From the NCBI RefSeq assembly GCF_028622875.1, contig NZ_CP117710.1:124001-188000 (forward strand): a stretch of 64,000 nt of DNA, read 5' to 3'. Below, one piece after another: positions 47,685-64,000 of this stretch. A program made the position numbers and the translations under genes. The notes under the pieces were generated by a model, which worked only from the letters and a program-made list of their open reading frames with translations, had not been told where the DNA came from and made no database searches. This DNA comes from Streptomyces sp. MMBL 11-1 (GTDB lineage Bacteria; Actinomycetota; Actinomycetes; Streptomycetales; Streptomycetaceae). The stretch's first letter is position 1; every line of letters begins with the position of its first letter.

Positions 47685-48563
47685 ATGGATCCAGCTGCGC
47701 AAAAGGTCAAGGGCATCGGCTTCATCGACCCTCTGCGGGACGGGCTGTGCGAGCAACTGGCAGACCTCGCCCAGCAGTGCATCACCGGTTTCAGCGACGA
47801 CCGCCCGGTCAGTGCCTCGTTGGTCCGCTCCCGGCTGACGAACGCACTCACCGGCGCGCCCCCTGTGCTCGCGGTCGCCCGCGATGACCGGGGAGTCACC
47901 GGCTGGTGTGCCGTGCGCCGCCCGGAACCCGGGGAAGGGCTGGCGCGTCTGTGGGGCCCGGTCGTCGCCCCGGGGGCCCGCCGGGCCGGACTGGGGGCGC
48001 GGCTCCTGGACGCCGTGGCCGGCGCAGCCCCCTGGCCGCTGGTGACCACGGATGTGCCGGCCGACCGGCCTGGTGCCGCCGCATTCTTCGCCCGGTCCGG
48101 GTGGACGGAGCTGGATACCGTCACCGTGCTGCACGGCACACCGGCCAGGGGCGGCTTCGAAGCCGCTACCGCCGACACGTTGCCGGAGCTGGGGGCGTAC
48201 GTCACGGACGCCGCCCGGCGGTACGCCGGGCATGAGGAGGCCTTCGCCAAGGCCACCTTGCGGCGATGGCAGGACGATGCCCGGTTCCGGCCGGGGAATC
48301 TGCTTCTCGACACCTCGACCGGGTCTCTGCTGCTGGCACTGGCCCAGCACACCGCGGTGAGCAGCGAGCTGTTGCTGGCCGAGGTCTGGGCCGCTGACGC
48401 AGATGTCCGCCGGCGGCTGATCACGGCGGCGCACACGATGGCCGCCGACCAGCAGTTGGACACCGTCCGCGCCGTGACCCGGCAGGAGCCGGCCGACTTC
48501 GTCGCCTGCGGCATGCACATCACCGGCCGCTGCAGCACCTTTGTCCTTCCCGGCGGGCGCTGA
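47685..48563 (+). CDS. GNAT-family acetyltransferase
   Basis: The 292-residue protein has one GNAT domain ('VLAVARDDRGVTGWCAVRRP', 'WGPVVAPGARRAGLGARLLD', 'DRPGAAAFFARSGWTELDTV') followed by a C-terminal half of similar size ('AYVTDAARRYAGHEEAFAKA', 'LLLAEVWAADADVRRRLITA') that could be a degenerate second GNAT unit. GAAGGG lies eight bases before ATG 47685; an ATG at 47667 has no site. It is the first gene of the cluster and could acetylate the product, an intermediate, or provide self-resistance. Confidence 0.8.
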   Translation: MDPAAQKVKGIGFIDPLRDGLCEQLADLAQQCITGFSDDRPVSASLVRSRLTNALTGAPPVLAVARDDRGVTGWCAVRRPEPGEGLARLWGPVVAPGARRAGLGARLLDAVAGAAPWPLVTTDVPADRPGAAAFFARSGWTELDTVTVLHGTPARGGFEAATADTLPELGAYVTDAARRYAGHEEAFAKATLRRWQDDARFRPGNLLLDTSTGSLLLALAQHTAVSSELLLAEVWAADADVRRRLITAAHTMAADQQLDTVRAVTRQEPADFVACGMHITGRCSTFVLPGGR

Positions 48564-48610
48564 CCTTTTCCGGGCGCTCCTTCGAACCGACCCCTGACAG
48601 GAGGGCTTCT

Positions 48611-50113
48611 ATGCCCGCATCCGTGAAACCGCCGCTCGTCCACGCGGTCGACGTCGTCGCCGGCGCGGACGAAGCCCGCCGCCTGGTCGGCGAACTCGCC
48701 TCCCGGCTCGCCGCCCACCCCGAGGTGCTGGGCATGCGGGAGGAGACGCCGGCGTCGTGGGTGTGCACTCTCACCGGCGGAGGCCGCGGGCGGCTGGCCC
48801 TGGCCGCCCCTGCGGAACCGGCGTCGGCCGCCCAGAACACCCACCGTCTCATCACGACCCTCGAGCAGGGCACGCCTGCCGCGGCGGAGACCTTCTTCGC
48901 GGCCGCACGGCACCTGCCGTTCACCACCACCGAGATCGCCGCGGCGGTCGACGAACTGCCGCTCACCAGCCGGCTGGCGGGCCGCTGGCCCCACAAGCCT
49001 CTGGCCGACGTCGGGGTTCTGCTGACGATCCACCACATGCGGGACTTTCTCGTCCTGGTCGACAGCCTGCTCGCTCTCGGGGTCGACCCGGCGCACATGA
49101 CCGTGATCGACAAGGAATACCCCTACGCCCACACCCACCGGGTGGACGCGCATCTGGTGCAGCGGTACGGCATCGCCGTGTGGCGCTACCGGAAGCTGGG
49201 CGAAGGGATCCGGGACCATATCGGCCGGGTGTCCGCGGCGGGCAAGCGGAGCGTCGTGATGGACGACGGTGGCTACGTCCTGCCCACGGTCCTGCGGGAT
49301 CTTCCCGACGAGGTGGGGCACTTCGTAGGGTTGGTGGAGCAGACCACGTCCGGCATCCGGAAGGTCGAGGGGCTTGCACTGCCGCTGCCGCTGTTCAGTG
49401 TGGCCGAGAGCGACATGAAGGGCATGATCGAGTCCTACGGCATCGCCGACGCGTCGGTCCGCAACACGCTGCGGCTGCTGCCGGATGAGAAGTTCGAGGG
49501 GCAGGCCGCCCTGGTCCTCGGTTTCGGACGGATCGGCCGTGAAGTCGCCCGGGTTCTGGCCGGCCGGCGGATGCGGGTCGCGGTGTTCGACGCCGACATC
49601 ACCCGCCTGGTCGCCGCGCACGAGGAAGGGTTCTTCACCGGCCGGTCCCTTACCGACCTGGTGGTGGCCCACCGGCCGCGCATGGTCATCGGCTGTGTCG
49701 GCAGCCGCAGTTTCGGACTGGAGCAGGCCCGCCTGCTGCCCCCGCGATCGTTCCTGGTCAGCACGACCAGCAGGAACTTCGAGTTCGGTCTGGAGGAGCT
49801 ACGGGCGGGCAGCACCGCTCTCACCGACCGGGGTGTGCTGGGCACCAGCTACCAGCTGGCCGACGGTCCGGAGGTCCTGGTTCTCGGGCACGGGATGCCG
49901 ATCAACTTCCACTACGCCGAGTCCCTGTCCAACCGCTACGTCGACCTGGTCCTGGCCGGGCTCGCCGTCGGCGCGGTGGCGCTGGCCGGCGGGGACCGGC
50001 GGCTGCGTCCCGGCCACAACGTGGCGGCCACCAACGCGATCCTCGCGGAGTCGAACATCGTCGACGACTACTACCGCCTCTACGGCCCCGACGGCGGTGG
50101 TGAGCGTGGCTGA
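48611..50113 (+). CDS. S-adenosyl-L-homocysteine hydrolase-like protein
   Basis: The 500-residue protein aligns with SAH hydrolase. Kept features are 'SVVMDDGGYVLPTVLRDL' (catalytic Asp region), 'VGLVEQTTSGIRKVEGLALP' (the E-x-T-T-x-G motif) and the NAD-binding loop 'AALVLGFGRIGREVARVLAG'. The usual NVNDSVTKxxFDN segment reads 'LFSVAESDMKGMIESYG': the Lys is kept, but Asn/Asp positions are replaced by Ala/Glu and the second Asp by Glu. Canonical enzymes cleave SAH by NAD-dependent 3'-oxidation. Here the chemistry may act on a modified nucleoside. There is a GGAGG site before ATG 48611. Confidence 0.82.
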   Translation: MPASVKPPLVHAVDVVAGADEARRLVGELASRLAAHPEVLGMREETPASWVCTLTGGGRGRLALAAPAEPASAAQNTHRLITTLEQGTPAAAETFFAAARHLPFTTTEIAAAVDELPLTSRLAGRWPHKPLADVGVLLTIHHMRDFLVLVDSLLALGVDPAHMTVIDKEYPYAHTHRVDAHLVQRYGIAVWRYRKLGEGIRDHIGRVSAAGKRSVVMDDGGYVLPTVLRDLPDEVGHFVGLVEQTTSGIRKVEGLALPLPLFSVAESDMKGMIESYGIADASVRNTLRLLPDEKFEGQAALVLGFGRIGREVARVLAGRRMRVAVFDADITRLVAAHEEGFFTGRSLTDLVVAHRPRMVIGCVGSRSFGLEQARLLPPRSFLVSTTSRNFEFGLEELRAGSTALTDRGVLGTSYQLADGPEVLVLGHGMPINFHYAESLSNRYVDLVLAGLAVGAVALAGGDRRLRPGHNVAATNAILAESNIVDDYYRLYGPDGGGERG

Positions 50114-50570
50114 GCGGATCTTCACGCTCGGGGACCTCACCGGGGTGGGGTCGGTGTGCGGCTGCCTGTCCTGCCGGCTCGGCGCCGTGTTCGCCGAGCA
50201 CCTCACCGCCCTGCGCACCGGCTATCCCGGGCCGGTCACCGCACTGGGGCACCGCGGGGCCTCTCCCGGAACGACCGCCGTGCCGCACTTCCTGGCCGTG
50301 CGGCTGGGCGAGGAGCTGGCGGACGTCGTGGTGTGGGAGGAGATGCGCCCGGACCAGCTGGCCGCCTGGCTCCCGCCCGCCCCGGCACGGGCCCGGGTGC
50401 CGCAGCTGGCCGGGCGCGTGCCGCGTCTGGTCCGTATCCGCCAAGCCGTACGTGCCGGCTCGTTCATCCCTTCGGGGGCGCCAGGCGCTGCTCTGGCCGC
50501 AGGCCGTTACCCCTCGTTCCGTTTCCTCGTCGAGCACTGGCCCGATCTCGAGAAGGAGTTCACCCCATGA
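50100..50570 (+). CDS. Unknown protein with CxxxC-type motif
   Basis: The 156-residue protein ('FTLGDLTGVGSVCGCLSCRL', 'LGEELADVVVWEEMRPDQLA', 'RYPSFRFLVEHWPDLEKEFT') has a Cys-x-Cys-x-x-Cys cluster near residue 20 that could bind metal. I know no family for it. GTG 50100 overlaps the SAHH-like gene by 14 bases; GTG 50097 and 50106 are alternatives. The stop overlaps the ATG of the methyltransferase gene, so it belongs to the cluster operon. Confidence 0.7.
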   Translation: MSVAERIFTLGDLTGVGSVCGCLSCRLGAVFAEHLTALRTGYPGPVTALGHRGASPGTTAVPHFLAVRLGEELADVVVWEEMRPDQLAAWLPPAPARARVPQLAGRVPRLVRIRQAVRAGSFIPSGAPGAALAAGRYPSFRFLVEHWPDLEKEFTP

Positions 50571-51352
50571 CCCCTGCATCTTCCGACTTCGCCGAGGTGG
50601 GCGGCGCGTACGCCGCCTACTCCAACGGCGGCCGCGGCCGGCTGCGCCACGACATCACCGCCCGCCGGGTTCTCGCCGAGCTCGGCGACCGTCCGGCGCG
50701 GGTCCTGGACGTCGGCTGCGGCGACGGGGAGATGGTGTGGCGCTTGGCTGCCGCGGGACACCAGGTCACCGGTGTGGAGCGGTCAGCCGGCATGCTCACC
50801 GCCGCCGCCGAACGGATCGCCGCCGCCCCGGAGCTCGCCGAGCGGGTGACCCTGGCCGAGGGTGACATCTACGCGCTGCCCTTCGACGACGCCGCGTTCG
50901 ACGCGGTGGTCTGCCACGGCGTCGTGATGTACCTGCCCGACTCCGTCGCCCCCACCGTGCACCTGGCCCGGCTCGTCGCCAAGGGCGGGCTCCTGAGCAT
51001 CCTGACGAAGAACCAGCTGGCCGTAGGCGTCCGCGAAGCGCTGCGCGGGCAGTACGAGTCGGCCCAGGCGCAGATCGAGAGCGGCCAGGCCGCGAGCGTG
51101 GGCAACCTCGGCATCACCACCCGCGGGGATACTCCCGACCACCTGGACGACCTCGCCCGGGCCAACGGCCTCACCCCGCTGCCCTGGCAGGGCGTGCGGA
51201 TCTTCCACGACCACTGCCCCAACGACTGGGCGCCCAAGAAGGAGGAGTACCAGGCGGCACTCGCCGTGGAATGGGCCGCCTCCACCCGCAGCCCCTACCG
51301 CGAGCTGGGACGCCTGGTCCACACCCTGGCCCGACGCGAGGCCACCACATGA
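50567..51352 (+). CDS. Class I SAM-dependent methyltransferase
   Basis: The 261-residue protein has motif I 'RVLDVGCGDGEMVWRLAAAG', the acidic residue in 'HQVTGVERSAGMLTAAAERI', 'EGDIYALPFDDAAFDAVVCH' and a C-terminal helical part ('WAPKKEEYQAALAVEWAAST'). This is the small-molecule O- or N-methyltransferase type. AGAAGGAG lies ahead of ATG 50567. SAH released by it could be handled by the neighbouring SAHH-like protein, if that activity is kept. Confidence 0.9.
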   Translation: MTPASSDFAEVGGAYAAYSNGGRGRLRHDITARRVLAELGDRPARVLDVGCGDGEMVWRLAAAGHQVTGVERSAGMLTAAAERIAAAPELAERVTLAEGDIYALPFDDAAFDAVVCHGVVMYLPDSVAPTVHLARLVAKGGLLSILTKNQLAVGVREALRGQYESAQAQIESGQAASVGNLGITTRGDTPDHLDDLARANGLTPLPWQGVRIFHDHCPNDWAPKKEEYQAALAVEWAASTRSPYRELGRLVHTLARREATT

Positions 51353-53325
51353 CCGGCCGGAGCGCGGTCGAACCGCTCACCATCGGCGCCCTCGCCCGGG
51401 AACTGAACGCTCGGGCGGGAACACCGATGCAGGCGCTGCGCTGCTACGAGTCCCTGGCCGCACTGTGGATCCGCTGCTGCGACACCGGACAGCCGGGCGC
51501 CGAGGTCCTGCAGGAGAAAACCTGGAACGCGGCCAGGGACCTGGCAGCCGGGAAGGACACGGCGGTCGCCCCGGAGTGCGCGAACATCCCCGCCCGGTCG
51601 GCCCACGACGAGTCGTTCGTCCGCTTACCGGCCTCCCTGGCCGTCCAGGGTGTGGAGTGGCCGGACGCGATCGCCCTGACCGACCTGTGGCTGGACACCC
51701 GGGAGGGCAACGGCCCGATCCTCGTCGCGGGGGTACGCACCGGCGGAGCGTATCTGGCCCCGCTGGTGGCCGCCCAGCTCGAGAGGTCGGGCCTCGACGT
51801 AGAACTGACGAGCGTCCGGCCGGGCGAGAAGTGCCACGCAGGGGGCCGGCGGGTGCTGCTCGTGGACGACCCGCCGCTGACCGGCCGAACCCTGCTCGCT
51901 CTGGCTCGGGAAATGTCCGGGCCGGGCGGGGCGGAGGTGCTGGTGCCGGTGTTCGACACCGGTGACGTGCAGGGGCTACGCGACGCGGGCGTCCCGGTGA
52001 CCGTGCTGCCGCGAGCCCAGTGGCAGTCCACCAGCCGCCTGGAGCCCGACACCCTGTCTGCCTACCTGGCTCAGCACGCCCACTGGCCGGGCACGGACCG
52101 GCCCGCGGTCGTGGACGGCGTCGTGCCCGGCAGGGAGAACTCCGCCCGGGCCCCGTGGCCGGGGGTGCGCCGCCGCTCCCCCGCCCGGGCCGCGGTCTTC
52201 CTGCGTACGCCCGATGGCGTACAGCGCGCGGTGGCGGGATGGGTGCCGCCGGGGGTTTTCGGGGACGCCGCGCGTGCCGCCGCCACCCGGGTGCGCAGCC
52301 CCCTCCCGCCGGCCACGCTCGCCGTGGCACCGGCCCTGGTGGTCAGCGAGGACCTCACCCAAGCCGGGGCGCTCGGCCGCAGACCTGGGCGCGAGCGGTT
52401 GGAGGAGGCGGTCGACTACGTAATCGCCCGCGCCCGGCACCTTGCGGTGACGGCCCCTGCCGACGGCGGGTCAGTGCCTCTGCCTTCGGTCCTTCGTACG
52501 GTGGCCCGGGAACTGACCGGGGCGGGCGGCGATGGGGCCGCGGTGCGGCTGCATCGGCTGCTGTCCGCTCTCGCCCCGGCGCTGCCCGACAATCGGTGCG
52601 AGGCGGAGAAGTGGTTCCTCGACGAGGCGGGGCGGCTCCGCAAGACCGGGCACCTCACGCACGCCTACCGGCGGGACAACGAGCTGCTCACCCCGTTAAT
52701 CGACCTCGCCGCGCTGAGTGTCGCATTCGGCTGTGGGCTCGACGACGTCGCCGAAAGTGTCGCCCGGCGCGTGCCGGGCGGCGCGCCGTGGAAAGCGGCG
52801 CTCGCCGTCGCCCTGCTGTGCTACGGCACCGCACGCGGCGAGCAACTGCCGCGCACCTACAACCCGCATCGTGCGGCAGGGACGGCCGTTGAGGCCTACC
52901 GGCTCCAGCGCGGCATGAACCACGCGGCCCGGCTGGCGCTGGATCTCCTGCACGAAACGCCCGGCCACCACCCACTGCGGACCGGTGACGGTGAGGACGG
53001 CGGCCCCCGCATCGTGGACCGGTGGCGCGAGCCCCCGGGCGCGCTCGTGGCACCCCGGCTGCCCTTCGGCGGCGCCCCCGACCACCAGGTGGTGCCCGGC
53101 CAGAGTCTCGAGGAGCGGGAGCTGACGAAGAAGGCCGTCGCGCAGTGGACCGGCCAGCGGTTCCTCCCGGTGCGCGAGGGCCAGATGCTGCTGCTCGCCC
53201 CACTGGGCGCACCGACGTCCTGGATCCGCGCCCAGGAGGACCTGGGGGAGCTCGACCGCCGACTTCCCCGGCCCGGGCTGCTCGCCTGGTGCGGGGTGCC
53301 CTGCGTATCCCTGGAGGCGGCCTGA
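51349..53325 (+). CDS. Phosphoribosyltransferase-domain protein with large C-terminal region
   Basis: The 658-residue protein has a type I phosphoribosyltransferase domain (about residues 100-220) with 'PILVAGVRTGGAYLAPLVAA' and a PRPP-loop-like 'RRVLLVDDPPLTGRTLLALA' (VDDPPLTGRT where VDDVxxTGxT is usual). The remaining 430 residues are largely helical and unrecognised. Two TTA codons occur, at 51625 and 52696. It overlaps the methyltransferase stop by ATGA. In the cluster it could attach or remove a ribosyl phosphate, or be a PRPP-binding regulator. Confidence 0.78.
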   Translation: MTGRSAVEPLTIGALARELNARAGTPMQALRCYESLAALWIRCCDTGQPGAEVLQEKTWNAARDLAAGKDTAVAPECANIPARSAHDESFVRLPASLAVQGVEWPDAIALTDLWLDTREGNGPILVAGVRTGGAYLAPLVAAQLERSGLDVELTSVRPGEKCHAGGRRVLLVDDPPLTGRTLLALAREMSGPGGAEVLVPVFDTGDVQGLRDAGVPVTVLPRAQWQSTSRLEPDTLSAYLAQHAHWPGTDRPAVVDGVVPGRENSARAPWPGVRRRSPARAAVFLRTPDGVQRAVAGWVPPGVFGDAARAAATRVRSPLPPATLAVAPALVVSEDLTQAGALGRRPGRERLEEAVDYVIARARHLAVTAPADGGSVPLPSVLRTVARELTGAGGDGAAVRLHRLLSALAPALPDNRCEAEKWFLDEAGRLRKTGHLTHAYRRDNELLTPLIDLAALSVAFGCGLDDVAESVARRVPGGAPWKAALAVALLCYGTARGEQLPRTYNPHRAAGTAVEAYRLQRGMNHAARLALDLLHETPGHHPLRTGDGEDGGPRIVDRWREPPGALVAPRLPFGGAPDHQVVPGQSLEERELTKKAVAQWTGQRFLPVREGQMLLLAPLGAPTSWIRAQEDLGELDRRLPRPGLLAWCGVPCVSLEAA

Positions 53326-53987
53326 TGCTCGTCTTCGACTTCGACGGTGTCCTGCACGACTCCCGCCACCGCGCGTGGCGCTGCTACCAGGACGCCCGCC
53401 GCGAAATGGAGCTGTGGGCCCTTCCCGACCTCACCGGCCCCGACGACCTTCCCGTCGTCTACCAGGGGGTGCTCAGTGCCTCCCTGACCCGCTGGATCGA
53501 CTTCGAGGTCGCCGAACGCTTCTGGAAACGGCACGCCGAACTGGCAGCCCTCACTGCCGAGGCCGAGCCCGCCGGGATCCTCCCCGACCTGGCCGGACTT
53601 CTGGCCGACTTGGCCGACGGTCCCGGCTACGCGGTCGTCACCGGAAGCCACCACATCACCGTCCGGACCCTTCTCGACCGCGACCTCGCCGCGCACCAAT
53701 TGCCCCGGGTACTCCTCTCCCGGGACGACCCGGGCGGGAAGACCGACAAGCTGCGCGCCCTGCGCGAGCACCACGAAGCCACGGTGTACGTCGGCGACAC
53801 CGGCAGCGACGTCCGCCACGCCCACGCCGCCCAACTGGTCTCGGTCGCCGTCGCCTACGGCTACGCGGACCGCGCCGACCTGCGCGCCGCCGAGCCGGAC
53901 CACCTGCTGGACACCCCGGCCGACCTGGCCACCTGGTGCCGAGCCCGGACAGGAACCGACGCGACCGCCCCTTCCCGCACCGTCTGA
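53325..53987 (+). CDS. HAD-superfamily hydrolase
   Basis: The 220-residue protein has HAD motifs I 'MLVFDFDGVLHDSRHRAWRC' (DxD), II 'GYAVVTGSHHITVRTLLDRD' (Thr-Gly-Ser), III 'GGKTDKLRALREHHE' (Lys) and IV 'ATVYVGDTGSDVRHAHAAQL' (GDxxxD). This is a complete phosphatase of the phosphoglycolate-phosphatase-like type. ATG 53325 overlaps the preceding stop by one base (TGATG). It likely removes phosphate from a sugar or nucleotide intermediate in the cluster. Confidence 0.9.
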   Translation: MLVFDFDGVLHDSRHRAWRCYQDARREMELWALPDLTGPDDLPVVYQGVLSASLTRWIDFEVAERFWKRHAELAALTAEAEPAGILPDLAGLLADLADGPGYAVVTGSHHITVRTLLDRDLAAHQLPRVLLSRDDPGGKTDKLRALREHHEATVYVGDTGSDVRHAHAAQLVSVAVAYGYADRADLRAAEPDHLLDTPADLATWCRARTGTDATAPSRTV

Positions 53988-54060
53988 CCCCTCTCCACGA
54001 ACGCGCCCGCCGCCCGGCTACCGCCCCCGGGCCGTCGGGCCCTGCCCGGAAGGACTCCGC

Positions 54061-56211: not shown

Positions 56212-56275
56212 ACTCCCGTCCAAGGCCCGGGCGCCCCGTCACGCCGTTGCGGTCGGGGCGCCCGGCACCCCGTGC

Positions 56276-56908
56276 TCAGGTGCTGGGTTTCTCCGGGATC
56301 GGCACCCAGTTGAACTCCGGGCAGAAGCGGGCGTACGTCGTCAGCTTCCACGTCGCGTACTCGTCGGTGCGGCCCGAGCTGCGCAGCAGATGCTTGACCC
56401 AGGTGTGCGCGATGCGCTCCTCCAGCGTCATGGTCGTGTCGATCTGGTCGAGCATCCGGCAGGCGACGGCGTAGTCCTCGACCGTCAGGGCGCTCAGGTC
56501 GATCTCGATGCCGTCCAGGGTGAAGGAGAACACCAGCCGCGAGGTGGAGAAGCGGGTCTTGCGCTCGCCCAGGAACGTGGTGTGAGGCGCCAGTGCCTCC
56601 CGCAGGCGGTCGCGGTCCTCGACCGGGTAGCCGATGCCCAGGTCCAGGTCGGAGCTCTCCAGGTTCAGCCGGGTGCCGAAGGAGCCGACGTCGCGCGGCT
56701 TGTGCCCGGTCCACTCGCTGATCATCGCGGCCGCCTCGGCGCGTACCCGCTCCAGACGGTCGTCGTGGACGCGCATCTGCTCGTAGAAGGCGCGCGCCCG
56801 GTCGAACTCGGTGTCGGTGAAGTCGCTGCGGTCGACCCACCGCCGCTCTGCGATCGCGTTCAAGTCAAGTTCGGTGAAGGGAGGTTGTGTCGTCACGCGA
56901 GGCACCAT
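56276..56908 (-). CDS. Pol beta-type nucleotidyltransferase
   Basis: The 210-residue protein has the nucleotidyltransferase signature 'RDVGSFGTRLNLESSDLDLG' (GSFG...S-x-DLDL) and the third acidic residue in 'FTLDGIEIDLSALTVEDYAV'. It would transfer an NMP to a small molecule or protein. ATG 56908 follows GGGAG. It is the only minus-strand gene in the cluster and is divergent from the aldo/keto reductase with 62 bases between, where promoters must overlap. Confidence 0.87.
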   Translation of the reverse strand: MVPRVTTQPPFTELDLNAIAERRWVDRSDFTDTEFDRARAFYEQMRVHDDRLERVRAEAAAMISEWTGHKPRDVGSFGTRLNLESSDLDLGIGYPVEDRDRLREALAPHTTFLGERKTRFSTSRLVFSFTLDGIEIDLSALTVEDYAVACRMLDQIDTTMTLEERIAHTWVKHLLRSSGRTDEYATWKLTTYARFCPEFNWVPIPEKPST

Positions 56909-56970
56909 ACTCACTCCCGGACGCGATTCATCAGTGTTTGCTAGTAATTGAGAGGTAAGAGGTACTTCCT

Positions 56971-58071
56971 GTGAGTGCTCCGCTTTCCCCCGCACGCCGC
57001 ACGCTCGCCTGCGGCTTGTCCGTTCATCCGATCGGGATCGGCGCCTGGGCCGTGGGCGGTGCTGACGACAACCTCGGGCTGCCGATGGGCTGGGGCACGG
57101 CCGACGACGTCGCCTCCCGTCGCGGCCTGGAGAGGGCCTACGAGCTCGGCGCGAACCTCATCGACACCGCCGACGTGTACGGGCACGGGCACTCCGAGCG
57201 GATCATCGGCGACTTCGTCGCCACCGTCCCCCGCGACACCGTGGTGCTGTCCTCCAAGGTCGGCTACCACCGCGGCACCGCCCGGCACGCCTACCTGCCC
57301 GCGGCCATGCGCCGCCAGCTCGAGACGAGCTTGGAGAACCTGCGCACCGACCGCCTCGACATCTACTTCTTCCACAACGCCGACTTCGGGCCCGAGGACC
57401 GCTACCTGGAGGAAGCCGTCGCCCAGATGCGCGACTTTCAGCGCCAGGGCCTGGTCACCGCCGTCGGGATGCGCGGCCCCCACCGCCACGCCACCGAGCG
57501 GGTCACCGTCGCCAAGGACCGGCGCGGCGACAAGTACGCCCGGTTCACCGACCTCGCCGAGCAGATCCGACCCGACTACCTCGCGGCCCGCTTCAACGCC
57601 CTGACCCCGCCCCCCGTTGCCGGTCGGCCGGACATCTTCGCCCTCGCCGCCTCCCTCGGCGCCAGTGTCCTGATCAACAAGCCGCTCGCCCAGGGCCTGC
57701 TCACCGGCAAGTACGACCCCGACCACCCGCTCGTCTTCACCTCCGGCGACCACCGCCTCCGCAAGGCGTGGTTCACCCCCGGCGCACTGCGGATCATCTC
57801 CGACGGCCTGCGCCCGCTCCGTGAGCGCTTCGGCGACAGTCCGGCTGATCTGACCCGCGTCGCGCTCCAGGTGTGCCTGCAGCGAGCCGCGAACGCCGCG
57901 GTCCTCGTCGGTTTCACGCGCCCCGAGCAGGTCGAAGCGAACCTGACCGCCGTCGGCACGCCGCTGACCGACGAAGAGCTCGCCTTCGTTCGCGCCACTC
58001 TCGGCCGCCTCCAGCAGAACCTGGACGCGAACGGCGAGGTCTTCCTGGACGAGAAGGGCGCCGGCCGATGA
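56971..58071 (+). CDS. Aldo/keto reductase
   Basis: The 366-residue protein has a complete AKR tetrad: Asp and Tyr in 'LIDTADVYGHGHSERIIGDF', Lys in 'VVLSSKVGYHRGTARHAYLP', and His in 'LDIYFFHNADFGPEDRYLEE', with an NADPH-binding C-terminal part ('GASVLINKPLAQGLLTGKYD', 'NAAVLVGFTRPEQVEANLTA'). It would reduce a carbonyl in a sugar or polyol intermediate. The start is GTG 56971 with GAGGT upstream. Its stop overlaps the next ATG (ATGA). Confidence 0.92.
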   Translation: MSAPLSPARRTLACGLSVHPIGIGAWAVGGADDNLGLPMGWGTADDVASRRGLERAYELGANLIDTADVYGHGHSERIIGDFVATVPRDTVVLSSKVGYHRGTARHAYLPAAMRRQLETSLENLRTDRLDIYFFHNADFGPEDRYLEEAVAQMRDFQRQGLVTAVGMRGPHRHATERVTVAKDRRGDKYARFTDLAEQIRPDYLAARFNALTPPPVAGRPDIFALAASLGASVLINKPLAQGLLTGKYDPDHPLVFTSGDHRLRKAWFTPGALRIISDGLRPLRERFGDSPADLTRVALQVCLQRAANAAVLVGFTRPEQVEANLTAVGTPLTDEELAFVRATLGRLQQNLDANGEVFLDEKGAGR

Positions 58072-58937
58072 GCCCCGCCTCCGAGCAGCTGTCCCTGCTC
58101 GCCACCGATGAGCCCGCGCAGCGGCCGGCCACCGACGCCGTGCGGCTGCTGCTGTTCAACGCCCAGCACGCTTCTCCGGAGCGCTCGCGCCGCCAGGCCG
58201 CATGGATCGCCGGCCAGGAGGGCGCCGATATCGTCGTCCTCACGGAGGTGTCGTCCACCCAGGGCGGCGACGCCATCGTCGCCGCGCTCACCGAGCGCGG
58301 GTACGCCACGGTGATCGCTCCCCAGCCATCCAGGCCCGACTACCGCACGGTCATCGCCTGCCGCACCAGTGCCGTCCGGACCGTCCCCAGCCCGGTCACC
58401 GTCACGCCCCATCGCGCCCCGGCGGCCCGCGTCACCGTCGGCGGTCACGACTTCGGCGTGCAGGGCCTGTACGTGCCCTCCCGCGGCCCGAAGGACCAGC
58501 GCAACGTCGCCAAGCGCGCCTTCCAGGAGGCGGTCACCGAGAGCCTGCCACGGCTGCTCGCCGCCTTTCCGGACATGCCCGTCATCGTGGCCGGAGACCT
58601 CAACGTCATCGACCGCGGCCACCAGCCCCCGCACAAGGTGTTCGGCGAGTGGGAGTACGCCTTCTACGACTCGTTCCAGGCCGCCGGTCTCACCGACGCC
58701 TTCCGCCACATCCACCCCGACCAGGTCGCCCACTCCTGGTTCGGGCGCAGCGGAAACGGCTTCCGCTTCGACCACATCTTCGTCTCCGCCTCCCACGCCG
58801 AACGCGTCCTGGCCTGCGCCTACCACCTGGAAGCCTGCGAGGAGGGGCTGACCGACCACGCGGTCATGACGCTGCGCCTGGGCCTGCCGTCCACCCCTGG
58901 CGAGCCGAGTTCAGCCCGAGCGACGAGGGCTTGCTGA
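58068..58937 (+). CDS. Endonuclease/exonuclease/phosphatase-family protein
   Basis: The 289-residue protein carries the EEP motifs: 'RLLLFNAQHASPERSRRQAA', 'DIVVLTEVSSTQGGD', 'MPVIVAGDLNVIDRGHQPPH', 'FRFDHIFVSASHAERVL' and 'EEGLTDHAVMTLRLG'. These bind metal and hydrolyse phosphodiester or phosphomonoester bonds. In a cluster with PRTase, HAD and Nudix proteins it may act on a nucleotide-like intermediate rather than on DNA. ATG 58068 overlaps the AKR stop. Confidence 0.9.
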   Translation: MSPASEQLSLLATDEPAQRPATDAVRLLLFNAQHASPERSRRQAAWIAGQEGADIVVLTEVSSTQGGDAIVAALTERGYATVIAPQPSRPDYRTVIACRTSAVRTVPSPVTVTPHRAPAARVTVGGHDFGVQGLYVPSRGPKDQRNVAKRAFQEAVTESLPRLLAAFPDMPVIVAGDLNVIDRGHQPPHKVFGEWEYAFYDSFQAAGLTDAFRHIHPDQVAHSWFGRSGNGFRFDHIFVSASHAERVLACAYHLEACEEGLTDHAVMTLRLGLPSTPGEPSSARATRAC

Positions 58938-59148
58938 CAGCTGGCCGCCGCAGCGACGGAAGGTCGGCGTTTCGGCCAACCTCCCCCGAGTCGCACGTCC
59001 TTGCGCGGCAAGGGTCGATGCACTGCGCACGCTCGGAAAACCGCTGAATCACAGGGCGCACAAGGCGTCCGAAAGGAACAGGTGCTCGAAATCATGCGGC
59101 GTCGTTGAGCACGGAGACACCACCGCCACGTCCACGAGGGGGAACACA

Positions 59149-61182
59149 TTGACGTCAGTCGAATCCGGCAGCGACGAGACCGCGAGCGGCCCGAGGACCG
59201 AGACCACGGACAACATCTCCGACGCCGAGCGGGAGCTGTACGGGGGACGGCTGCGCTACGACCAGTCCTACACCCGCCATGAAGGCCCCCTGACCCGGCT
59301 GAAGTTCGGACACATGGCAGCCGCGCTGCCGCACATGGTGGGCATGGTGCTGCGCACCGGCTGGCAGGCTGACCGGCGCGCGCTGATGGGGGTCGTGGCG
59401 GCCGAGCTCGGGCAAGGAGTCACCGCCGCGTGGGGACTGGTGGCGGTCAACGGCGTCCTCGCGCAGCTGTTCGCCGCCGGGCCGACCGTGGACAAGCTCC
59501 GCGACGCCCTGCCGTCCCTGGTGGCGCTCGCCGTCGCGGCAGTGGCCGGCGCCGTTCTGGCCGCGTGGTCGACGGCCATGTCGGGCCGGCTGGAGCCCCA
59601 GGTGGAGCGGGCGGTCTCCGCGCGGTACTACAGGGCCGTCACCCATGTGGAGGTGGAGGCGACCGAGAGGCCGGAGGTCCAGCGGATCCTGGAGGCAGGG
59701 AAGTTCGGCACGGACTCGGCCCGCAGCATGCTGCGGCTGTCGGTCGGCGTCGGCAACGTGGTGATCGGTATGGCGGCAGCCGCGGTCGTGCTCGCCGCGC
59801 TCCACTGGGCGTTACTCCCGATGCTGCTGGCGATCGCCCTGCCCAAGGGGTGGGGCGCCGTCCGTTCCGCGCGCCGCGACTACCTCTCCCGGATGAACTG
59901 GGTCGACCACCGCAGGGCGATCGCGTCCCTGCTCGCCTACCTGACTCGCCCGCACGCCGCCGGTGAGCTCCGCGTACACGCCGCCGGCAGGAAACTGCTC
60001 TCCAGCTACGAGGAGATGTCGAGGCAGACGGAAGCCGAGCAGCGTCGCCTGGCCCGCGCCCAGGCATCCACGGACCTGGTCGCGGGCGGATTCGCCGGTA
60101 TGGCGTCGCTCGCCTGCTACGGGGTGCTGTGGTGGCTGCTGTCGACCGGCGGTCTGCCGCTCGCGGTCGGCGGGACGGCGGTGATCGCCATCCGTACGTC
60201 GACGGCGCGGCTGACGTCGCTGGTGCAGCAGGTCAACCGGCTCTACGAGGAGCTGCTGTTCCTCACCGATACCGAGGACGCCATCAAGGTGGCGGGCGAG
60301 CACGCGATCCCGCTCACCGGTGCCCCGCTGCCCGCACCGGTGCGGGAGGTGCGGACGGAGGCGGTCTCCTACACCTACCCGGGTGCAGATGGCCCCTCCC
60401 TCAAGGGCGTGAGTGTGCGAGTACCGCGGGGCAAGGTAACCGCCTTGGTGGGCGCGAACGGGTCAGGGAAGACCACCCTCACCAAGGTGCTGGCCGGCCT
60501 GCTGCTCCCCACGGACGGGACCGTGGACTGGGTGGGCGAGTCAGGCGCCCACGTCGAACTGCGCGAAGCCGACCGCGCCGAGATCTTCGCCCACGTCGGC
60601 CTGCTGGCACAGGACTTCCCCCGCTGGGAGATGACGGCGGCCGCGAACGTCGCCATCGGCGCTGGCGACCGTCCCCGGGACATGGACCGCGTCCGCAAGG
60701 CCGCCGGTGAAGCGGACGTCCTCGAGCTGGTCGAGGCCCTGCCGCACGGCTGGGCCTCGATCGTGTTCAAGGGCTACGAGCGCGGTGTCCAGCTCTCGGG
60801 AGGCCAGTGGCAGAAGCTGGGGACAGCTCGCACTCGCTACCGGCAGGCACCGTTTCTGCTGGTCGACGAGCCGACCAGCGCCCTCGACCCTCACTCGGAG
60901 ATCGCCGCGTTCGAAGGACTGTGGTCCCTGGCCGAGGACGGGCACGCGGTCGTCCTCGTCACCCACCGGCTCGCGGCGACCATGCACGCCGACCACATCT
61001 ACGTCCTCGATCAGGGCAGCGTCGTCGAGGACGGCACCCACGAGGACCTCATGGCCATCGAGGGCGGCCGGTATCAGGGGATGTTCACCGCCCAGGCCGC
61101 GCAGTACGGGATCGCGCCGACACCCCGCCACCTTCCCGGCCCCCGCGGCGTCCAGCCGTCCGACAGCGAGACGCCGAGCTGA
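59149..61182 (+). CDS. ABC transporter, fused permease and ATPase
   Basis: The 677-residue half-transporter has an N-terminal membrane domain ('LVALAVAAVAGAVLAAWSTA', 'GNVVIGMAAAAVVLAALHWA', 'ASLACYGVLWWLLSTGGLPL') and an ATPase with Walker A 'ALVGANGSGKTTLTKVLAGL', signature 'GVQLSGGQWQKLGTARTRY', Walker B 'APFLLVDEPTSALDP' and 'VVLVTHRLAATMHADHIYVL'. It probably exports the product as a homodimer. The start is TTG 59149 after GAGGGGG. A TTA codon at 59812 suggests bldA dependence. Confidence 0.92.
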   Translation: MTSVESGSDETASGPRTETTDNISDAERELYGGRLRYDQSYTRHEGPLTRLKFGHMAAALPHMVGMVLRTGWQADRRALMGVVAAELGQGVTAAWGLVAVNGVLAQLFAAGPTVDKLRDALPSLVALAVAAVAGAVLAAWSTAMSGRLEPQVERAVSARYYRAVTHVEVEATERPEVQRILEAGKFGTDSARSMLRLSVGVGNVVIGMAAAAVVLAALHWALLPMLLAIALPKGWGAVRSARRDYLSRMNWVDHRRAIASLLAYLTRPHAAGELRVHAAGRKLLSSYEEMSRQTEAEQRRLARAQASTDLVAGGFAGMASLACYGVLWWLLSTGGLPLAVGGTAVIAIRTSTARLTSLVQQVNRLYEELLFLTDTEDAIKVAGEHAIPLTGAPLPAPVREVRTEAVSYTYPGADGPSLKGVSVRVPRGKVTALVGANGSGKTTLTKVLAGLLLPTDGTVDWVGESGAHVELREADRAEIFAHVGLLAQDFPRWEMTAAANVAIGAGDRPRDMDRVRKAAGEADVLELVEALPHGWASIVFKGYERGVQLSGGQWQKLGTARTRYRQAPFLLVDEPTSALDPHSEIAAFEGLWSLAEDGHAVVLVTHRLAATMHADHIYVLDQGSVVEDGTHEDLMAIEGGRYQGMFTAQAAQYGIAPTPRHLPGPRGVQPSDSETPS

Positions 61183-61249
61183 TCCACCCGAGCGCCCCCG
61201 TTTGCCCGGCTTGACGGCCACCCGCCCCCACCATCGAAGGACGACGCCT

Positions 61250-62719
61250 ATGTCTCCCAGCTTCACCGCGATCCGCAGAACCGTCGAGGCGTATCTCGAC
61301 CGGCACCCTGGGGAGCGTGACGCCTTGGCCGAACTCCTTGCCGCGGTGAACCGGCCCGTTGAGGCGACCGCCCGGACGGCATTGCCCGGGCGCATCACGT
61401 GCAGCGCCGTCGTCATCGACCGGCAGGGCCGGGTCCTGCACATCGGGCACCGTGCCAACGGCGGCCTCATGCTCAACTCCGGAGGCCGCATCGAGCCCGA
61501 GGACCGCACGCTGCTGGCCGCTGCACTGCGGAAGGTGTCGGAGGGGGCTGGACTCGGGCCGGGCACCCTGTGCCTGACCCGGCAACTGCTCGGCTCTCCC
61601 CTCCACATCACCGTCCACGACATCACCTCGAACGCGGCGGAAGGGGAGCCGGCCGGCTGCCACTACGACTTCTGCTACGCGTTCAACCTCGCCGGCGAGG
61701 AGCCGCCGAGGATCGTGTTGCAGGACGAGGAGGTGTCCGGCGCCCGGTGGCTCCCGCAGCCGGAGGTCACCCCGCCGGCCCTGCGAGCGAAACTCCTCGC
61801 GGCATGCCTGGACGGCAGGCCGGAGCCGGTGAACGCTTCGGCGCTCATCCACGACGGGCATAACCGGTATCTGCTCCATCTGCGCGACCACAAACCGGGC
61901 GAAATCTGGGAGTCCGGAGCTTTTGCCCTTCTTGGCGGCGGTCGCACGCATGACGACGAGAGCCTGGAGGGGACGTTGCTGCGGGAGCTGTCCGAGGAGG
62001 TGCCCGGCCTTCGGCTCGAGGACGTGAAGCCCTACGCGGTGGAGGCGGCCAGCAGCATCGACGGCCTCAGCGTCCCGGTCCAGGTTTTCGCCGGCCGGTG
62101 GCGCGGCAACCCCGACCGCCTCGCGCTGCATGAGGGTGTGCTGCTGCGCTGGTTCACGGTCGACGAACTGGACCGGCTGCGCCTGAGCCCAGCAGCCCGG
62201 GATCTGATTCGCCGACACGCGGCCGAGAACCCCCCGGTCAGCGAACCGGCCCCGGCTCCTCCTGTGTGGGACGGGGGCAGCCAGGTGGTGCTGAACGGAA
62301 TCGGGGTTCACCTCCACATCGAAGACGCCGAAGGCCGGGTGCTGCTCGGCCTGCGGCACCCCAAGTCGAAGTACGCGGGGAACACATGGCACTACCTCGC
62401 CGGGAGGTGCGAGCAGGAGCCCGCCCTCGCCTGCTTGGTCCGCGAGGCCCGGGAAGAGGCAGGACTGGTCATCGACCCCGCGGACGTAGAGCTCGCGCAT
62501 GTCGTCCACGTCGTCGACGCCCCGGGCAGTCTGCCCTTGATGCAGCTCGTCTTCCGGGCCCGCCGTTGGGAGGGCACCCCCGAGGTCCGCGAGCCCGACA
62601 AGTGCCTGACGTGGCAGTGGTGGCCGCAAGATGAGCTCCCGGACCGGCTCGTTTCCTACACTCGCACGGCCATCACCGCGATCGCCGAAGGCCGCCCCTA
62701 CTCCCAGCTGGGCTGGTGA
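61250..62719 (+). CDS. Three-module Nudix protein
   Basis: The 489-residue protein holds three Nudix-like modules. Module 1 (about 45-170) has a degenerate box 'GGRIEPEDRTLLAAALRKVS' with Arg-Lys replacing the Arg-Glu. Module 2 (about 190-320) has an intact box in 'GGGRTHDDESLEGTLLRELS' followed by EEV. Module 3 (about 345-480) has 'AGRCEQEPALACLVREAREE' one residue shorter than usual. Only module 2 looks fully catalytic. It follows the ABC transporter after 67 bases, with GAAGGA upstream. It may act on nucleotide intermediates or protect the cell by clearing modified nucleotides. Confidence 0.85.
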   Translation: MSPSFTAIRRTVEAYLDRHPGERDALAELLAAVNRPVEATARTALPGRITCSAVVIDRQGRVLHIGHRANGGLMLNSGGRIEPEDRTLLAAALRKVSEGAGLGPGTLCLTRQLLGSPLHITVHDITSNAAEGEPAGCHYDFCYAFNLAGEEPPRIVLQDEEVSGARWLPQPEVTPPALRAKLLAACLDGRPEPVNASALIHDGHNRYLLHLRDHKPGEIWESGAFALLGGGRTHDDESLEGTLLRELSEEVPGLRLEDVKPYAVEAASSIDGLSVPVQVFAGRWRGNPDRLALHEGVLLRWFTVDELDRLRLSPAARDLIRRHAAENPPVSEPAPAPPVWDGGSQVVLNGIGVHLHIEDAEGRVLLGLRHPKSKYAGNTWHYLAGRCEQEPALACLVREAREEAGLVIDPADVELAHVVHVVDAPGSLPLMQLVFRARRWEGTPEVREPDKCLTWQWWPQDELPDRLVSYTRTAITAIAEGRPYSQLGW

Positions 62720-62821
62720 ACAGGGTGAGCACACCCACCGATAGCGGCGCTGGCCAGCGGGCTAGGACCGAACCCACGCACGCGCTGCCCCGGCCTCCGG
62801 CGAAGCCGAGGGAGGTGATCC

Positions 62822-64000
62822 GTGCCGTCCTGCGCTGAAAACCCCTCCATCGCCGGCACGTCACTGTGGAGGCACCGGGACTTCCGCCGGTACCTGACCG
62901 GCCAGACCGCGAGCGTGACCGGCAGCTCGATCGCGCAGATGGCACTGCCGGTACTGGCCGTGCTCCACCTGGACGCAACCACCGCCCAGGTCGCCTGGCT
63001 GGCGTTCCTCGGACAGCTCCCGCCCGCACTGCTCGCCCTCCACGCCGGCGCGCTCGCCGACCGGCACTCCAAGCGCCGACAGATGATCACCGGCGACCTG
63101 GTGAGCGCGACCGTACTCGCCACCGTGCCGGTGGCGGCCGCGCTGGGCACCCTCACCCTCACGCAGCTCATGATCGTCGCCGCGGTGCAAGGGGCGGCGA
63201 GCGTGCTCCACGACGCGGCGGCCATCAGCCTGCTGCCCAGCCTCGTCGACCGGTCCCTGATCCAGCGGAGCAACAGCCGGGTCGGCGCACTGTTCGCGGT
63301 CGCCGCGAGCGCCGGAAGCCACCTCGGCGCCGCGCTGACCGCGCTGCTCGGCCCCTCCCGGGCCCTCCTCGGGGACGTCGCCTCCTACCTGATCAGCGCC
63401 GTGTGCACCGCCCGCATCCAGACCGCCGAACCCGCCCGCGTACGCCCGGAGACCCACCGGCTGCGTGGCGAGATCGGCGAGGGCCTGCGATACGTGCGCG
63501 GCGATGACCGGCTGTGGACCCTGACCCTGGTCAACGCCACGACCTCGTTCGCCCTCGGGCTGCTCAACACCCTCTGGGCCCTCTACTTGCTGAGGTCCTT
63601 ATCGATGAGCGCGACCGCGTTCGGCGTGGTGCTGGGCCTCGGCGCGCTGGGCGCGGCCGCCGGAGCGCTCACCGCACCGGCGTTGGCCCGCCGGTGCGGC
63701 CCGGGGCCGATGATGCTGGCCGCGCTCGCGATCACCCCGCTCACCCAGCTCCCGCTGCTGCTCGCCTCCCCCGGCCTTGCCTGGCAGATCACGATCGGTG
63801 CGGCGCTCTTCCTGCAGCTCGCCTGCGCCGGCGCCGCTGGGACCACCCAAAGATCCATTCGGCAGATCGTCACCACGGCTGGGATGCAGGCGCGGATGCA
63901 GGCGGTAAGCACCTGGCTGACGTCCGGCGCCCGCCCCGTGGCCGCGCTCCTCGCCGGCGCCCTGGGCACGTGGATCGGTGTCCGGCCCGCCCTGACCGCC
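62822..64000 (+). CDS. MFS transporter (cut by the window edge)
   Basis: A GTG at 62822 with GGAGG upstream opens a frame that runs to the last base without a stop. The product starts 'LWRHRDFRRYLTGQTASVTG' after a short leader and has repeated hydrophobic helices ('LAFLGQLPPALLALHAGALA', 'ATVLATVPVAAALGTLTLTQ', 'GVVLGLGALGAAAGALTAPA') with the MFS loop 'GALADRHSKRRQM'. This is the EntS-like MFS exporter type, missing only its C-terminal end. A TTA codon lies at 63599. It is a second export route for the cluster. Confidence 0.9.
   Translation, partial: MPSCAENPSIAGTSLWRHRDFRRYLTGQTASVTGSSIAQMALPVLAVLHLDATTAQVAWLAFLGQLPPALLALHAGALADRHSKRRQMITGDLVSATVLATVPVAAALGTLTLTQLMIVAAVQGAASVLHDAAAISLLPSLVDRSLIQRSNSRVGALFAVAASAGSHLGAALTALLGPSRALLGDVASYLISAVCTARIQTAEPARVRPETHRLRGEIGEGLRYVRGDDRLWTLTLVNATTSFALGLLNTLWALYLLRSLSMSATAFGVVLGLGALGAAAGALTAPALARRCGPGPMMLAALAITPLTQLPLLLASPGLAWQITIGAALFLQLACAGAAGTTQRSIRQIVTTAGMQARMQAVSTWLTSGARPVAALLAGALGTWIGVRPALTA

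What the first reader, a model, noticed from the sequence alone, without database searches (positions are those of the whole stretch)
47685..64000. Orphan biosynthetic cluster with nucleoside-like logic
SAHH-like protein, phosphoribosyltransferase domain, HAD, EEP and Nudix hydrolases, nucleotidyltransferase, AKR, SAM methyltransferase and a B12 radical SAM enzyme occur together with two exporters and no PKS/NRPS. Enzymes acting on nucleosides and phosphates dominate, so a modified nucleoside or nucleotide-derived product is likely. I do not recognise the combination as a known pathway.
Basis: partly seen in the sequence, partly recalled or inferred. Interest (0 to 1): 0.82.

Follow-up and report, generated by a model that had tools for sequence, protein, structure and literature searches.

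The report
OxsB-like nucleotide gene cluster
A Streptomyces gene cluster whose key enzyme resembles the one that shrinks a DNA sugar ring to make the antiviral oxetanocin A, so it may make a new kind of nucleoside, although its product is unknown.

Summary
The B12 radical SAM protein (54061-56211) is the key: its one strong match among solved structures is OxsB, the ring-contracting enzyme of oxetanocin A (242 bits; next TokK, 24), at 28% identity. With an Agrobacterium protein and 12 other rows it forms its own branch. An aldo-keto reductase lies within 8 kb in 11 of 14 related loci examined, usually with an ExoIII-like EEP protein and a divergent nucleotidyltransferase-like gene. Aldehyde reduction is a step the oxetanocin literature leaves to an unspecific enzyme. 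Best reading: a nucleotide-derived product whose sugar is contracted or rearranged by the radical SAM enzyme, reduced by the AKR, dephosphorylated and exported.

Corrections: the run is a mosaic. GNAT-SAHH-orf-MT-PRT-HAD also occurs without a radical SAM gene (a Kitasatospora plasmid); three loci carry aminotransferase/formyltransferase genes instead. The exporter/Nudix module runs about 7 kb past the window and occurs elsewhere without the radical SAM gene. The SAHH-like protein has lost five of nine SAHH residues checked. It does not match oxetanocin, albucidin or herbicidin clusters gene for gene, as far as the passages seen describe them. No activity is shown; AlsB could not be placed.

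The parts
47685..48563 (+). GNAT acetyltransferase-like protein, first gene of module A; left boundary of conserved synteny
   Evidence: PF00583 25.5 bits over cut-off 20.7 (longer frame); 66-71% identical in AC558, S. caelestis, NWU339, NBC_01724 and Kitasatospora NBC_01519; of 8 genes upstream of it none has a match near the radical SAM loci that would extend the synteny
48611..50113 (+). SAHH-like NAD-dependent protein with several SAHH residues changed
   Evidence: 66 bits to SAHH structure 7zd8; GxGxxG kept; of nine positions checked (human numbering, recalled) H55, D131, K186, N346 kept and E156Q, D190E, N191S, H301S, H353L changed, the same in AC558 and S. caelestis
50106..50570 (+). 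154-aa protein of unknown function between SAHH-like and MT
   Evidence: no NCBIfam or Pfam match; 72-80% identical in the 5 other loci with module A
50567..51352 (+). SAM-dependent class I methyltransferase
   Evidence: Methyltransf_25 68.5 bits; CmoM-like 83.7 bits, far below that family's cut-off of 366
51349..53325 (+). PRTase-like N-terminal domain (PRPP-type loop VDDPPLT..T) plus a large C-terminal domain of unknown function
   Evidence: sub-threshold PF00156; loop invariant except one nearly invariant D in 29 sequences; nine of ten profile matches in the PDB are PyrR or purine PRTases, all with E above 0.05
53325..53987 (+). HAD phosphatase
   Evidence: motifs FDFDGV, TGS, KTDK, GDTGSD present
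54061..56211 (+). Cobalamin-dependent radical SAM enzyme of OxsB type
   Evidence: 242 bits to OxsB 5ul2; CX3CX2C; 96 alignment columns conserved in both the window clade and an OxsB-side group; tree
56276..56896 (-). Nucleotidyltransferase-like protein (GTG start near 56896 chosen from the annotated start of relatives; longest frame to 56995)
   Evidence: invariant GS.G..LNL..SD.DLG and DLS in 8 sequences; sub-threshold Pfam NTP_transf_2 and MTPAP-like; divergent from the AKR in 8 of 8 related loci that have it
56971..58071 (+). Aldo-keto reductase
   Evidence: PF00248 145.9 bits; catalytic D, Y, K, H (roles recalled) kept in 10 of 10 sequences aligned, window included
58068..58937 (+). EEP-family protein closest to ExoIII/AP endonucleases
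   Evidence: xth 56.4 bits, cut-off 99; best solved matches ExoIII type, 30.8 bits; N, E, D.N, D and DH motifs kept in 10 of 10 sequences aligned
59149..61182 (+). ABC exporter (fused ATPase)
   Evidence: 91% identical in NBC_01216, but only its last 48 residues match in S. caelestis and AC558 and nothing in NWU339
61250..62719 (+). Protein with three Nudix stretches; the first Nudix box degenerate
62822..64000 (+). MFS exporter; its frame ends at 195 bases past the window (L021:2822-4195)

Best explanation
A biosynthetic cluster, probably on a large plasmid, for a nucleotide-derived small molecule. Its core is the radical SAM-AKR pair, usually with the EEP and nucleotidyltransferase-like genes. 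Proposed working: (1) the cobalamin radical SAM enzyme abstracts hydrogen from the sugar of a (deoxy)nucleotide and contracts or rearranges the ring, as OxsB and AlsB do with dATP/dAMP, leaving an aldehyde; (2) the AKR reduces the aldehyde to the alcohol; (3) HAD and/or EEP remove phosphate, the role OxsA has for oxetanocin; alternatively the ExoIII-like EEP repairs the producer's DNA 3' ends; (4) the nucleotidyltransferase-like and Nudix proteins inactivate or hydrolyse nucleotide forms of the product inside the cell; (5) MFS/ABC export it. Module A (GNAT, NAD-dependent SAHH-like, MT, PRTase, HAD) makes or tailors the nucleotide; some other loci have a DegT aminotransferase and formyltransferase instead. 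Shown: gene identities, family placement, motifs, conserved neighbourhood. Inferred: every reaction, the substrate, and the order of steps.
For: OxsB is the only solved protein with a strong match (242 bits; TokK 24 bits; none other at E 0.001). 96 columns are conserved in both the 13-row window clade and a 9-row OxsB-side group; 92 of them are shared by the Agrobacterium protein, 61 by a third clade, 34 by an outgroup protein; they include the three cysteines, OxsB E363, E436 and D477, and a C-terminal W.LIN. AKR lies within 3.2 kb of the radical SAM gene in 10 of 14 loci and at 7.6 kb in one more; window-type EEP is in 9 of 14 and the NTase-like gene in 8 of 14. Published work says an unspecific alcohol dehydrogenase reduces the oxetanocin aldehyde and OxsA dephosphorylates (PMC13331322 passages; PMC7074753 passages). 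Neighbours act on nucleotides or phosphate: Nudix, HAD, EEP, PRTase, and in S. europaeiscabiei a dTMP-kinase-like domain.
Against: Only 28% identity to OxsB, on a separate long branch. OxsB Asn186, under the cobalt, is Thr in 14 of 14 window-clade rows, though it is also Ser or Asp in several OxsB-side rows. No OxsA-type HD phosphohydrolase and no second radical SAM gene (AlsA type) was found in the region. Most cobalamin radical SAM enzymes are methylases, so methylation is not excluded. AKR was not found in 3 of 14 loci: Agrobacterium (40% identity), G057 (gene broken) and NBC_01724 (fragment only). AlsB was not in any collection I could identify by name, so its distance to this clade is unknown. 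The EEP protein is closer to DNA-repair nucleases than to small-molecule phosphatases.
Confidence: 0.5

Rival explanations
1. The radical SAM enzyme is a C-methylase (or another radical modifier) of a nucleoside or nucleotide, not a ring contractase; the product is a C-methylated or otherwise modified nucleoside.
For: Methylation is the commonest reaction of cobalamin radical SAM enzymes (PMC13142503 and PMC13331322 passages). The clade is distant from OxsB and has Thr at OxsB Asn186.
Against: Its closest characterised relative does not methylate in its pathway. An AKR near it in 11 of 14 loci fits an aldehyde intermediate better than methylation.
Confidence: 0.22
2. The finding is not one pathway but a run of independent plasmid modules: A (GNAT to HAD), B (radical SAM, NTase-like, AKR, EEP) and C (ABC, Nudix, MFS, methyltransferases, PIG-L) that happen to be adjacent in one plasmid lineage.
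For: A occurs on the Kitasatospora NBC_01519 plasmid, in which no radical SAM match was found. B occurs without A in GC420, G277, G660 and others within the stretches fetched. Most of C with EEP occurs in NBC_01216, whose plasmid had no radical SAM match, beside an FxLD lanthipeptide cluster.
Against: A-B-C order is kept in four strains as far as contigs reach (window, AC558, S. caelestis, NWU339), and A sits by a radical SAM fragment in NBC_01724. 10 of 47 PRT-family clusters, the window's included, share a contig length with one of the 120 listed radical SAM homologues, with radical SAM identity down to 68%. A and B are 73 bases apart.
Confidence: 0.25
3. Herbicidin-like chemistry: the SAHH-like protein acts on an adenosine-derived intermediate (C-C bond formation, recalled) and the radical SAM enzyme remodels it.
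For: Herbicidin clusters hold an SAHH-like protein, a radical SAM protein and methyltransferases (PMC6794829 Table 1). The window SAHH-like protein scores 115-120 bits against an SAHH-Gfo/Idh fusion on the same contig and 66 bits against its best solved SAHH, by different programs.
Against: The two oxidoreductases of the herbicidin table have no counterpart among the region's Pfam hits except the AKR, whose relation to them was not tested; its radical SAM protein has 435 residues, against 716 here. SAHH-like proteins at about 40% identity also occur without the other genes in 8 of 8 loci examined.
Confidence: 0.08

Closest known systems
Oxetanocin A cluster, OxsB (Priestia/Bacillus megaterium; PDB 5UL2)
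   Same: B12 radical SAM enzyme of the same family, alignable over 677 columns; phosphatase and nucleotide logic
   Different: 28% identity, separate branch, Thr for Asn186; no HD phosphohydrolase OxsA found; AKR, EEP and nucleotidyltransferase-like genes beside it; tailoring modules. The full oxs gene list was not seen
Albucidin cluster, AlsB/AlbB and AlsA/AlbA (Streptomyces albus subsp. chlorinus)
   Same: Streptomyces cluster with an OxsB-like enzyme
   Different: Albucidin needs a second, biotin-synthase-like radical SAM protein and forms a putative operon with a ribonucleotide reductase gene (PMC7074753 passages); neither was found in this region. AlsB sequence not available to me, so no direct comparison
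Herbicidin/aureonuclemycin clusters (her, hcd, hbc, anm)
   Same: SAHH-like protein, a radical SAM protein, methyltransferase; MFS transporter in hcd
   Different: Radical SAM protein of 435 aa, not 716; no EEP, PRTase or Nudix named in the herbicidin table seen
S. europaeiscabiei NBC_00497, Nocardia NBC_01327 and G262 radical SAM loci (uncharacterised)
   Same: Radical SAM 59-64% identical, AKR, EEP-family protein
   Different: DegT aminotransferase, formyltransferase and a 227-aa protein in place of module A

Membership tests
OxsB-type cobalamin-dependent radical SAM enzymes | Cobalamin-binding domain followed by radical SAM domain with CX3CX2C | tested here: met
   (B12-binding Pfam is just below cut-off)
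OxsB-type cobalamin-dependent radical SAM enzymes | Closest characterised structure is OxsB, not a methylase | tested here: met
   OxsB 242 bits, TokK 24 bits, no other at E 0.001
OxsB-type cobalamin-dependent radical SAM enzymes | Groups with OxsB to the exclusion of other homologues | tested here: not met
   its own clade with the Agrobacterium protein (99/100); order among clades unresolved, long branches warned of, midpoint root for drawing only
OxsB-type cobalamin-dependent radical SAM enzymes | Asn186 below cobalt | tested here: inconclusive
   Thr in 14 of 14 window-clade rows; but OxsB-side rows have N, S or D and the outgroup N, so the residue does not mark the family; a paper leaves its role open (PMC8992657 passage)
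OxsB-type cobalamin-dependent radical SAM enzymes | Ring contraction of deoxyadenosine phosphates | not testable with these tools
   needs enzyme assay
Oxetanocin A cluster | oxsA HD-domain phosphohydrolase beside oxsB | tested here: not met
   no HD match among the region's proteins scanned
Albucidin cluster | Second radical SAM protein (AlsA) beside AlsB | tested here: not met
   no second radical SAM gene among the region's proteins scanned or among 10 downstream genes scanned
Herbicidin cluster | SAHH-like protein, two oxidoreductases, 435-aa radical SAM protein | tested here: not met
   an SAHH-like protein and one AKR, but a 716-aa radical SAM protein of another type (table)
S-adenosylhomocysteine hydrolase | Catalytic and adenosine-binding residues (human numbers and roles recalled) | tested here: not met
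   four of nine positions kept (H55, D131, K186, N346), five changed (E156Q, D190E, N191S, H301S, H353L)
Known anti-phage defence systems (PADLOC) | Match to a defence model | tested here: not met
   1 of 10 proteins matched, the Nudix protein to PDC-S07; the other nine none (MT, ABC and MFS were not given)

The most novel reading that the evidence does not exclude
The core (OxsB-like radical SAM, AKR, ExoIII-like EEP, divergent nucleotidyltransferase-like gene), which in GC420, G277 and G660 stands without module A and with no match to the window's exporters in the stretches fetched, is a cassette, often plasmid-borne, that makes a chain-terminating sugar-modified nucleotide, working like prokaryotic viperin (an intracellular anti-phage nucleotide; recalled) or as an antibiotic, and carries its own immunity: the ExoIII-like protein trims terminator-capped DNA 3' ends and the nucleotidyltransferase-like/Nudix proteins disarm the nucleotide.
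Probability: 0.12. Interest if true: 0.88.

Novelty: new variant of a known kind. Interest (0 to 1): 0.6.

Why it matters
Only two natural oxetane nucleosides are known (review passages). The window's radical SAM protein has at least 120 homologues at 63% identity or more, those that carry an organism name all actinobacterial (120 listed of 725 hits at E 1e-30), and they come with alternative tailoring modules, so this could be a source of unreported sugar-modified nucleotides. A conserved reductase partner would fill a step that the oxetanocin pathway leaves to an unspecific enzyme, and the distant sequence gives an independent test of what cobalamin does in non-methylating radical SAM enzymes.

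Tried and rejected
Defence system: PADLOC gave no match for the core proteins; kept only as the novel case. True SAHH: rejected on residues. Function of the SAHH-like protein from its 40% relatives: in 8 of 8 loci fetched none of the other genes of modules A or B matched beside them (about 9 kb either side, less in one), so no clue. Locating AlsB through a third clade (P0262): 2 of 394 genomes matched, both members of the window clade. An OxsB-centred protein search (120 of 125 hits listed) gave OxsB itself but no entry named as AlsB. Structures of the PRTase and nucleotidyltransferase-like proteins could not be predicted; profile searches of the PDB gave weak PyrR-like hits for the first and nothing meaningful for the second. 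Literature: B-24567 gave one antimycin paper, seen in the listing only; two of oxetane nucleoside, genome mining, radical SAM gave 163 papers, 12 listed, none on this cluster by title; cobalamin-dependent radical SAM + nucleoside antibiotic + biosynthesis gave 0; oxetanocin + biosynthetic gene cluster + Streptomyces gave 4. MIBiG was not available. NBC_01216 showed module C beside an FxLD lanthipeptide cluster; one narrow pattern (F, one of five residues, LD) found no such precursor in the window, but the NBC_01216 precursor itself would not fit that pattern, so this is no test.


Full report
What is there. The window is G000:C2:124001-188000 of an 8.5 Mb genome that the relatives show to be Streptomyces-like; C2 has 398,978 bases beside a main contig of 8.0 Mb. 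Parts of the window match Streptomyces plasmids, none over 80% of a query (14 and 36 records), so C2 is probably a large plasmid (inference). SAHH-like to HAD overlap by 1-8 bases; the radical SAM gene follows 73 bases later; the nucleotidyltransferase-like gene is on the other strand, divergent from the AKR; the AKR overlaps EEP by 4 bases; ABC, triple Nudix and MFS follow.

Radical SAM. Against the PDB the protein finds OxsB at 9e-71 (242 bits, residues 115-612) and TokK at 7e-5 (24 bits), nothing else at 0.001. Full-length alignment: 28% identity, 45% similarity to OxsB. In a 40-row tree it sits with 12 other rows and one Agrobacterium row in a clade with support 99/100; OxsB sits in another group; the order among groups is not resolved and the tree tool warns of long branches. 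Of 96 columns conserved in both 13 window-clade rows and an OxsB-side group of nine rows chosen by me (four divergent rows, P0213, P0222, P0243 and P0253, left out), 92 are shared by the Agrobacterium protein, 61 by a third clade and 34 by an outgroup protein. OxsB Asn186 is Thr in 14 of 14 window-clade rows, and N, S or D on the OxsB side. So it works most likely like OxsB in general type, but is not an OxsB orthologue.

Neighbourhood. I examined 14 other loci with a radical SAM homologue: AC558, S. caelestis, NWU339, GC420, S. europaeiscabiei plasmid, G660, Actinoalloteichus spitiensis, G262, Nocardia NBC_01327 plasmid, G277, CdTB01 plasmid (5' half missing, an ISL3 transposase gene just upstream), G057 (gene broken), Agrobacterium pusense plasmid (40% identity) and NBC_01724 plasmid (48-residue fragment). 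Two more distant partial plasmid hits, Sphingobium (25%) and Sinorhizobium (31%), were not examined. The AKR is within 3.2 kb of the radical SAM gene in 10 of 14 and at 7.6 kb in Nocardia; it was not found in G057, Agrobacterium and NBC_01724. Window-type EEP is in 9 of 14; Nocardia has only the second EEP type, and Actinoalloteichus none before its contig ends about 1 kb after the AKR. The NTase-like gene is in 8 of 14, always divergent from the AKR. Complete module A (GNAT, SAHH-like, orf, MT, PRT, HAD) is in 4 of 14 (AC558, S. caelestis, NWU339 over two contigs, NBC_01724). DegT/formyltransferase/227-aa genes are in 3 of 14 (S. europaeiscabiei, G262, Nocardia). Among 296 related genomes 5, own included, have the radical SAM protein at 1e-20, and 2, own included, the PRTase protein at 1e-10: a patchy distribution. 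In the protein database 10 of 47 PRT-family clusters, the window's own included, share their longest-contig length with one of the 120 listed radical SAM homologues, which I read as the same contig (counted by eye; a lower bound, because only 120 of 725 were listed).

Mosaic. Module A stands on the Kitasatospora NBC_01519 plasmid followed by unrelated genes; the tblastn found no radical SAM match in that record. Most of module C (ABC, triple Nudix, MFS, Nudix-phosphotransferase, methyltransferase-Nudix-PCMT protein, 286-aa protein, PIG-L) with EEP stands on the NBC_01216 plasmid, also without a radical SAM match, beside an FxLD lanthipeptide cluster. The right part of the cluster runs past the window: five of the frames tested to about window-equivalent 70990 are 83-91% identical in NWU339, and two of them (58% and 85%) were found in S. 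caelestis. Eight genes upstream of GNAT gave only two scattered matches in the relatives, neither in synteny, so the left boundary is near 47685. Only the last 48 residues of the ABC exporter match in AC558 and S. caelestis and nothing in NWU339, so it is not essential to the set.

Other enzymes. AKR motifs and all five EEP motifs are kept in 10 of 10 sequences aligned for each, window included. EEP is nearest to ExoIII/AP endonucleases. The PRTase-like protein has a conserved PRPP-type loop and a large C-terminal domain for which no family or structure was found. The SAHH-like protein keeps the NAD-binding glycines and four of nine SAHH residues checked, and has changed five (numbers recalled), so I do not call it an SAHH; about 40%-identical relatives occur without the other genes in 8 of 8 loci fetched. 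HAD motifs are intact. Of three Nudix boxes the first is degenerate.

Mechanism. From papers (passages read, not whole texts): OxsB and AlsB form a [2.1.0] bicyclic compound from dATP/dAMP using two SAM molecules; OxsA removes phosphate; an unspecific alcohol dehydrogenase reduces the aldehyde (PMC13331322; PMC7074753). The AKR here would be the dedicated version of that reductase, and HAD/EEP the phosphatase. This is inference from family and neighbourhood; substrate, base and product are unknown. Rivals are a C-methylation pathway, a chance run of modules, and herbicidin-like chemistry, each with refuting tests given.

Known or new. It does not match gene for gene the albucidin or herbicidin gene tables, or oxetanocin as far as the passages describe it. 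I could not search MIBiG, nor place AlsB. I rate it a new variant of a known kind: an OxsB-type nucleotide cluster with its own reductase, an ExoIII-like partner and interchangeable neighbouring modules.

Noticed in passing
L021:15987-18710 (G000:C2:199987-202710, - strand; past the window): A 907-aa fusion of an SAHH-like domain with a Gfo/Idh oxidoreductase; the herbicidin table lists an SAHH-like protein and oxidoreductases as separate genes. No radical SAM match among the few neighbours scanned.
   Followed up: partly
window:29212-32691: Lantibiotic dehydratase (35% identical to the one in the FxLD lanthipeptide cluster of NBC_01216, whose plasmid also holds a copy of most of module C).
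   Followed up: partly
L028:8857-12259: Agrobacterium pusense plasmid: OxsB-like radical SAM gene followed directly by a second radical SAM gene (variant_rSAM/MSMEG_0568 type) and a Nudix gene; might be an AlsB/AlsA-like pair.
   Followed up: partly
L025:13695-15575: S. europaeiscabiei plasmid: dTMP-kinase-like domain fused to a DegT aminotransferase, followed by a formyltransferase, beside the radical SAM-AKR-EEP core; a PqqD-like gene precedes the radical SAM gene.
   Followed up: partly
L070:16329-26443: NBC_01724 plasmid: module A ends at a short radical SAM fragment, followed by TIGR02677-02680 genes (Wadjet type, recalled).
   Followed up: no
L021:7760-10129: 789-aa methyltransferase-Nudix-PCMT fusion in module C; its homologue in NBC_01216 is annotated as FxLD-system methyltransferase.
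   Followed up: partly
window:38022-42377: NB-ARC/TPR protein and a protein-kinase-domain protein next to each other.
   Followed up: no
L011:10001-12147: S. caelestis radical SAM gene matches in two frames near residues 34-41: a frame change or a sequencing error.
   Followed up: no
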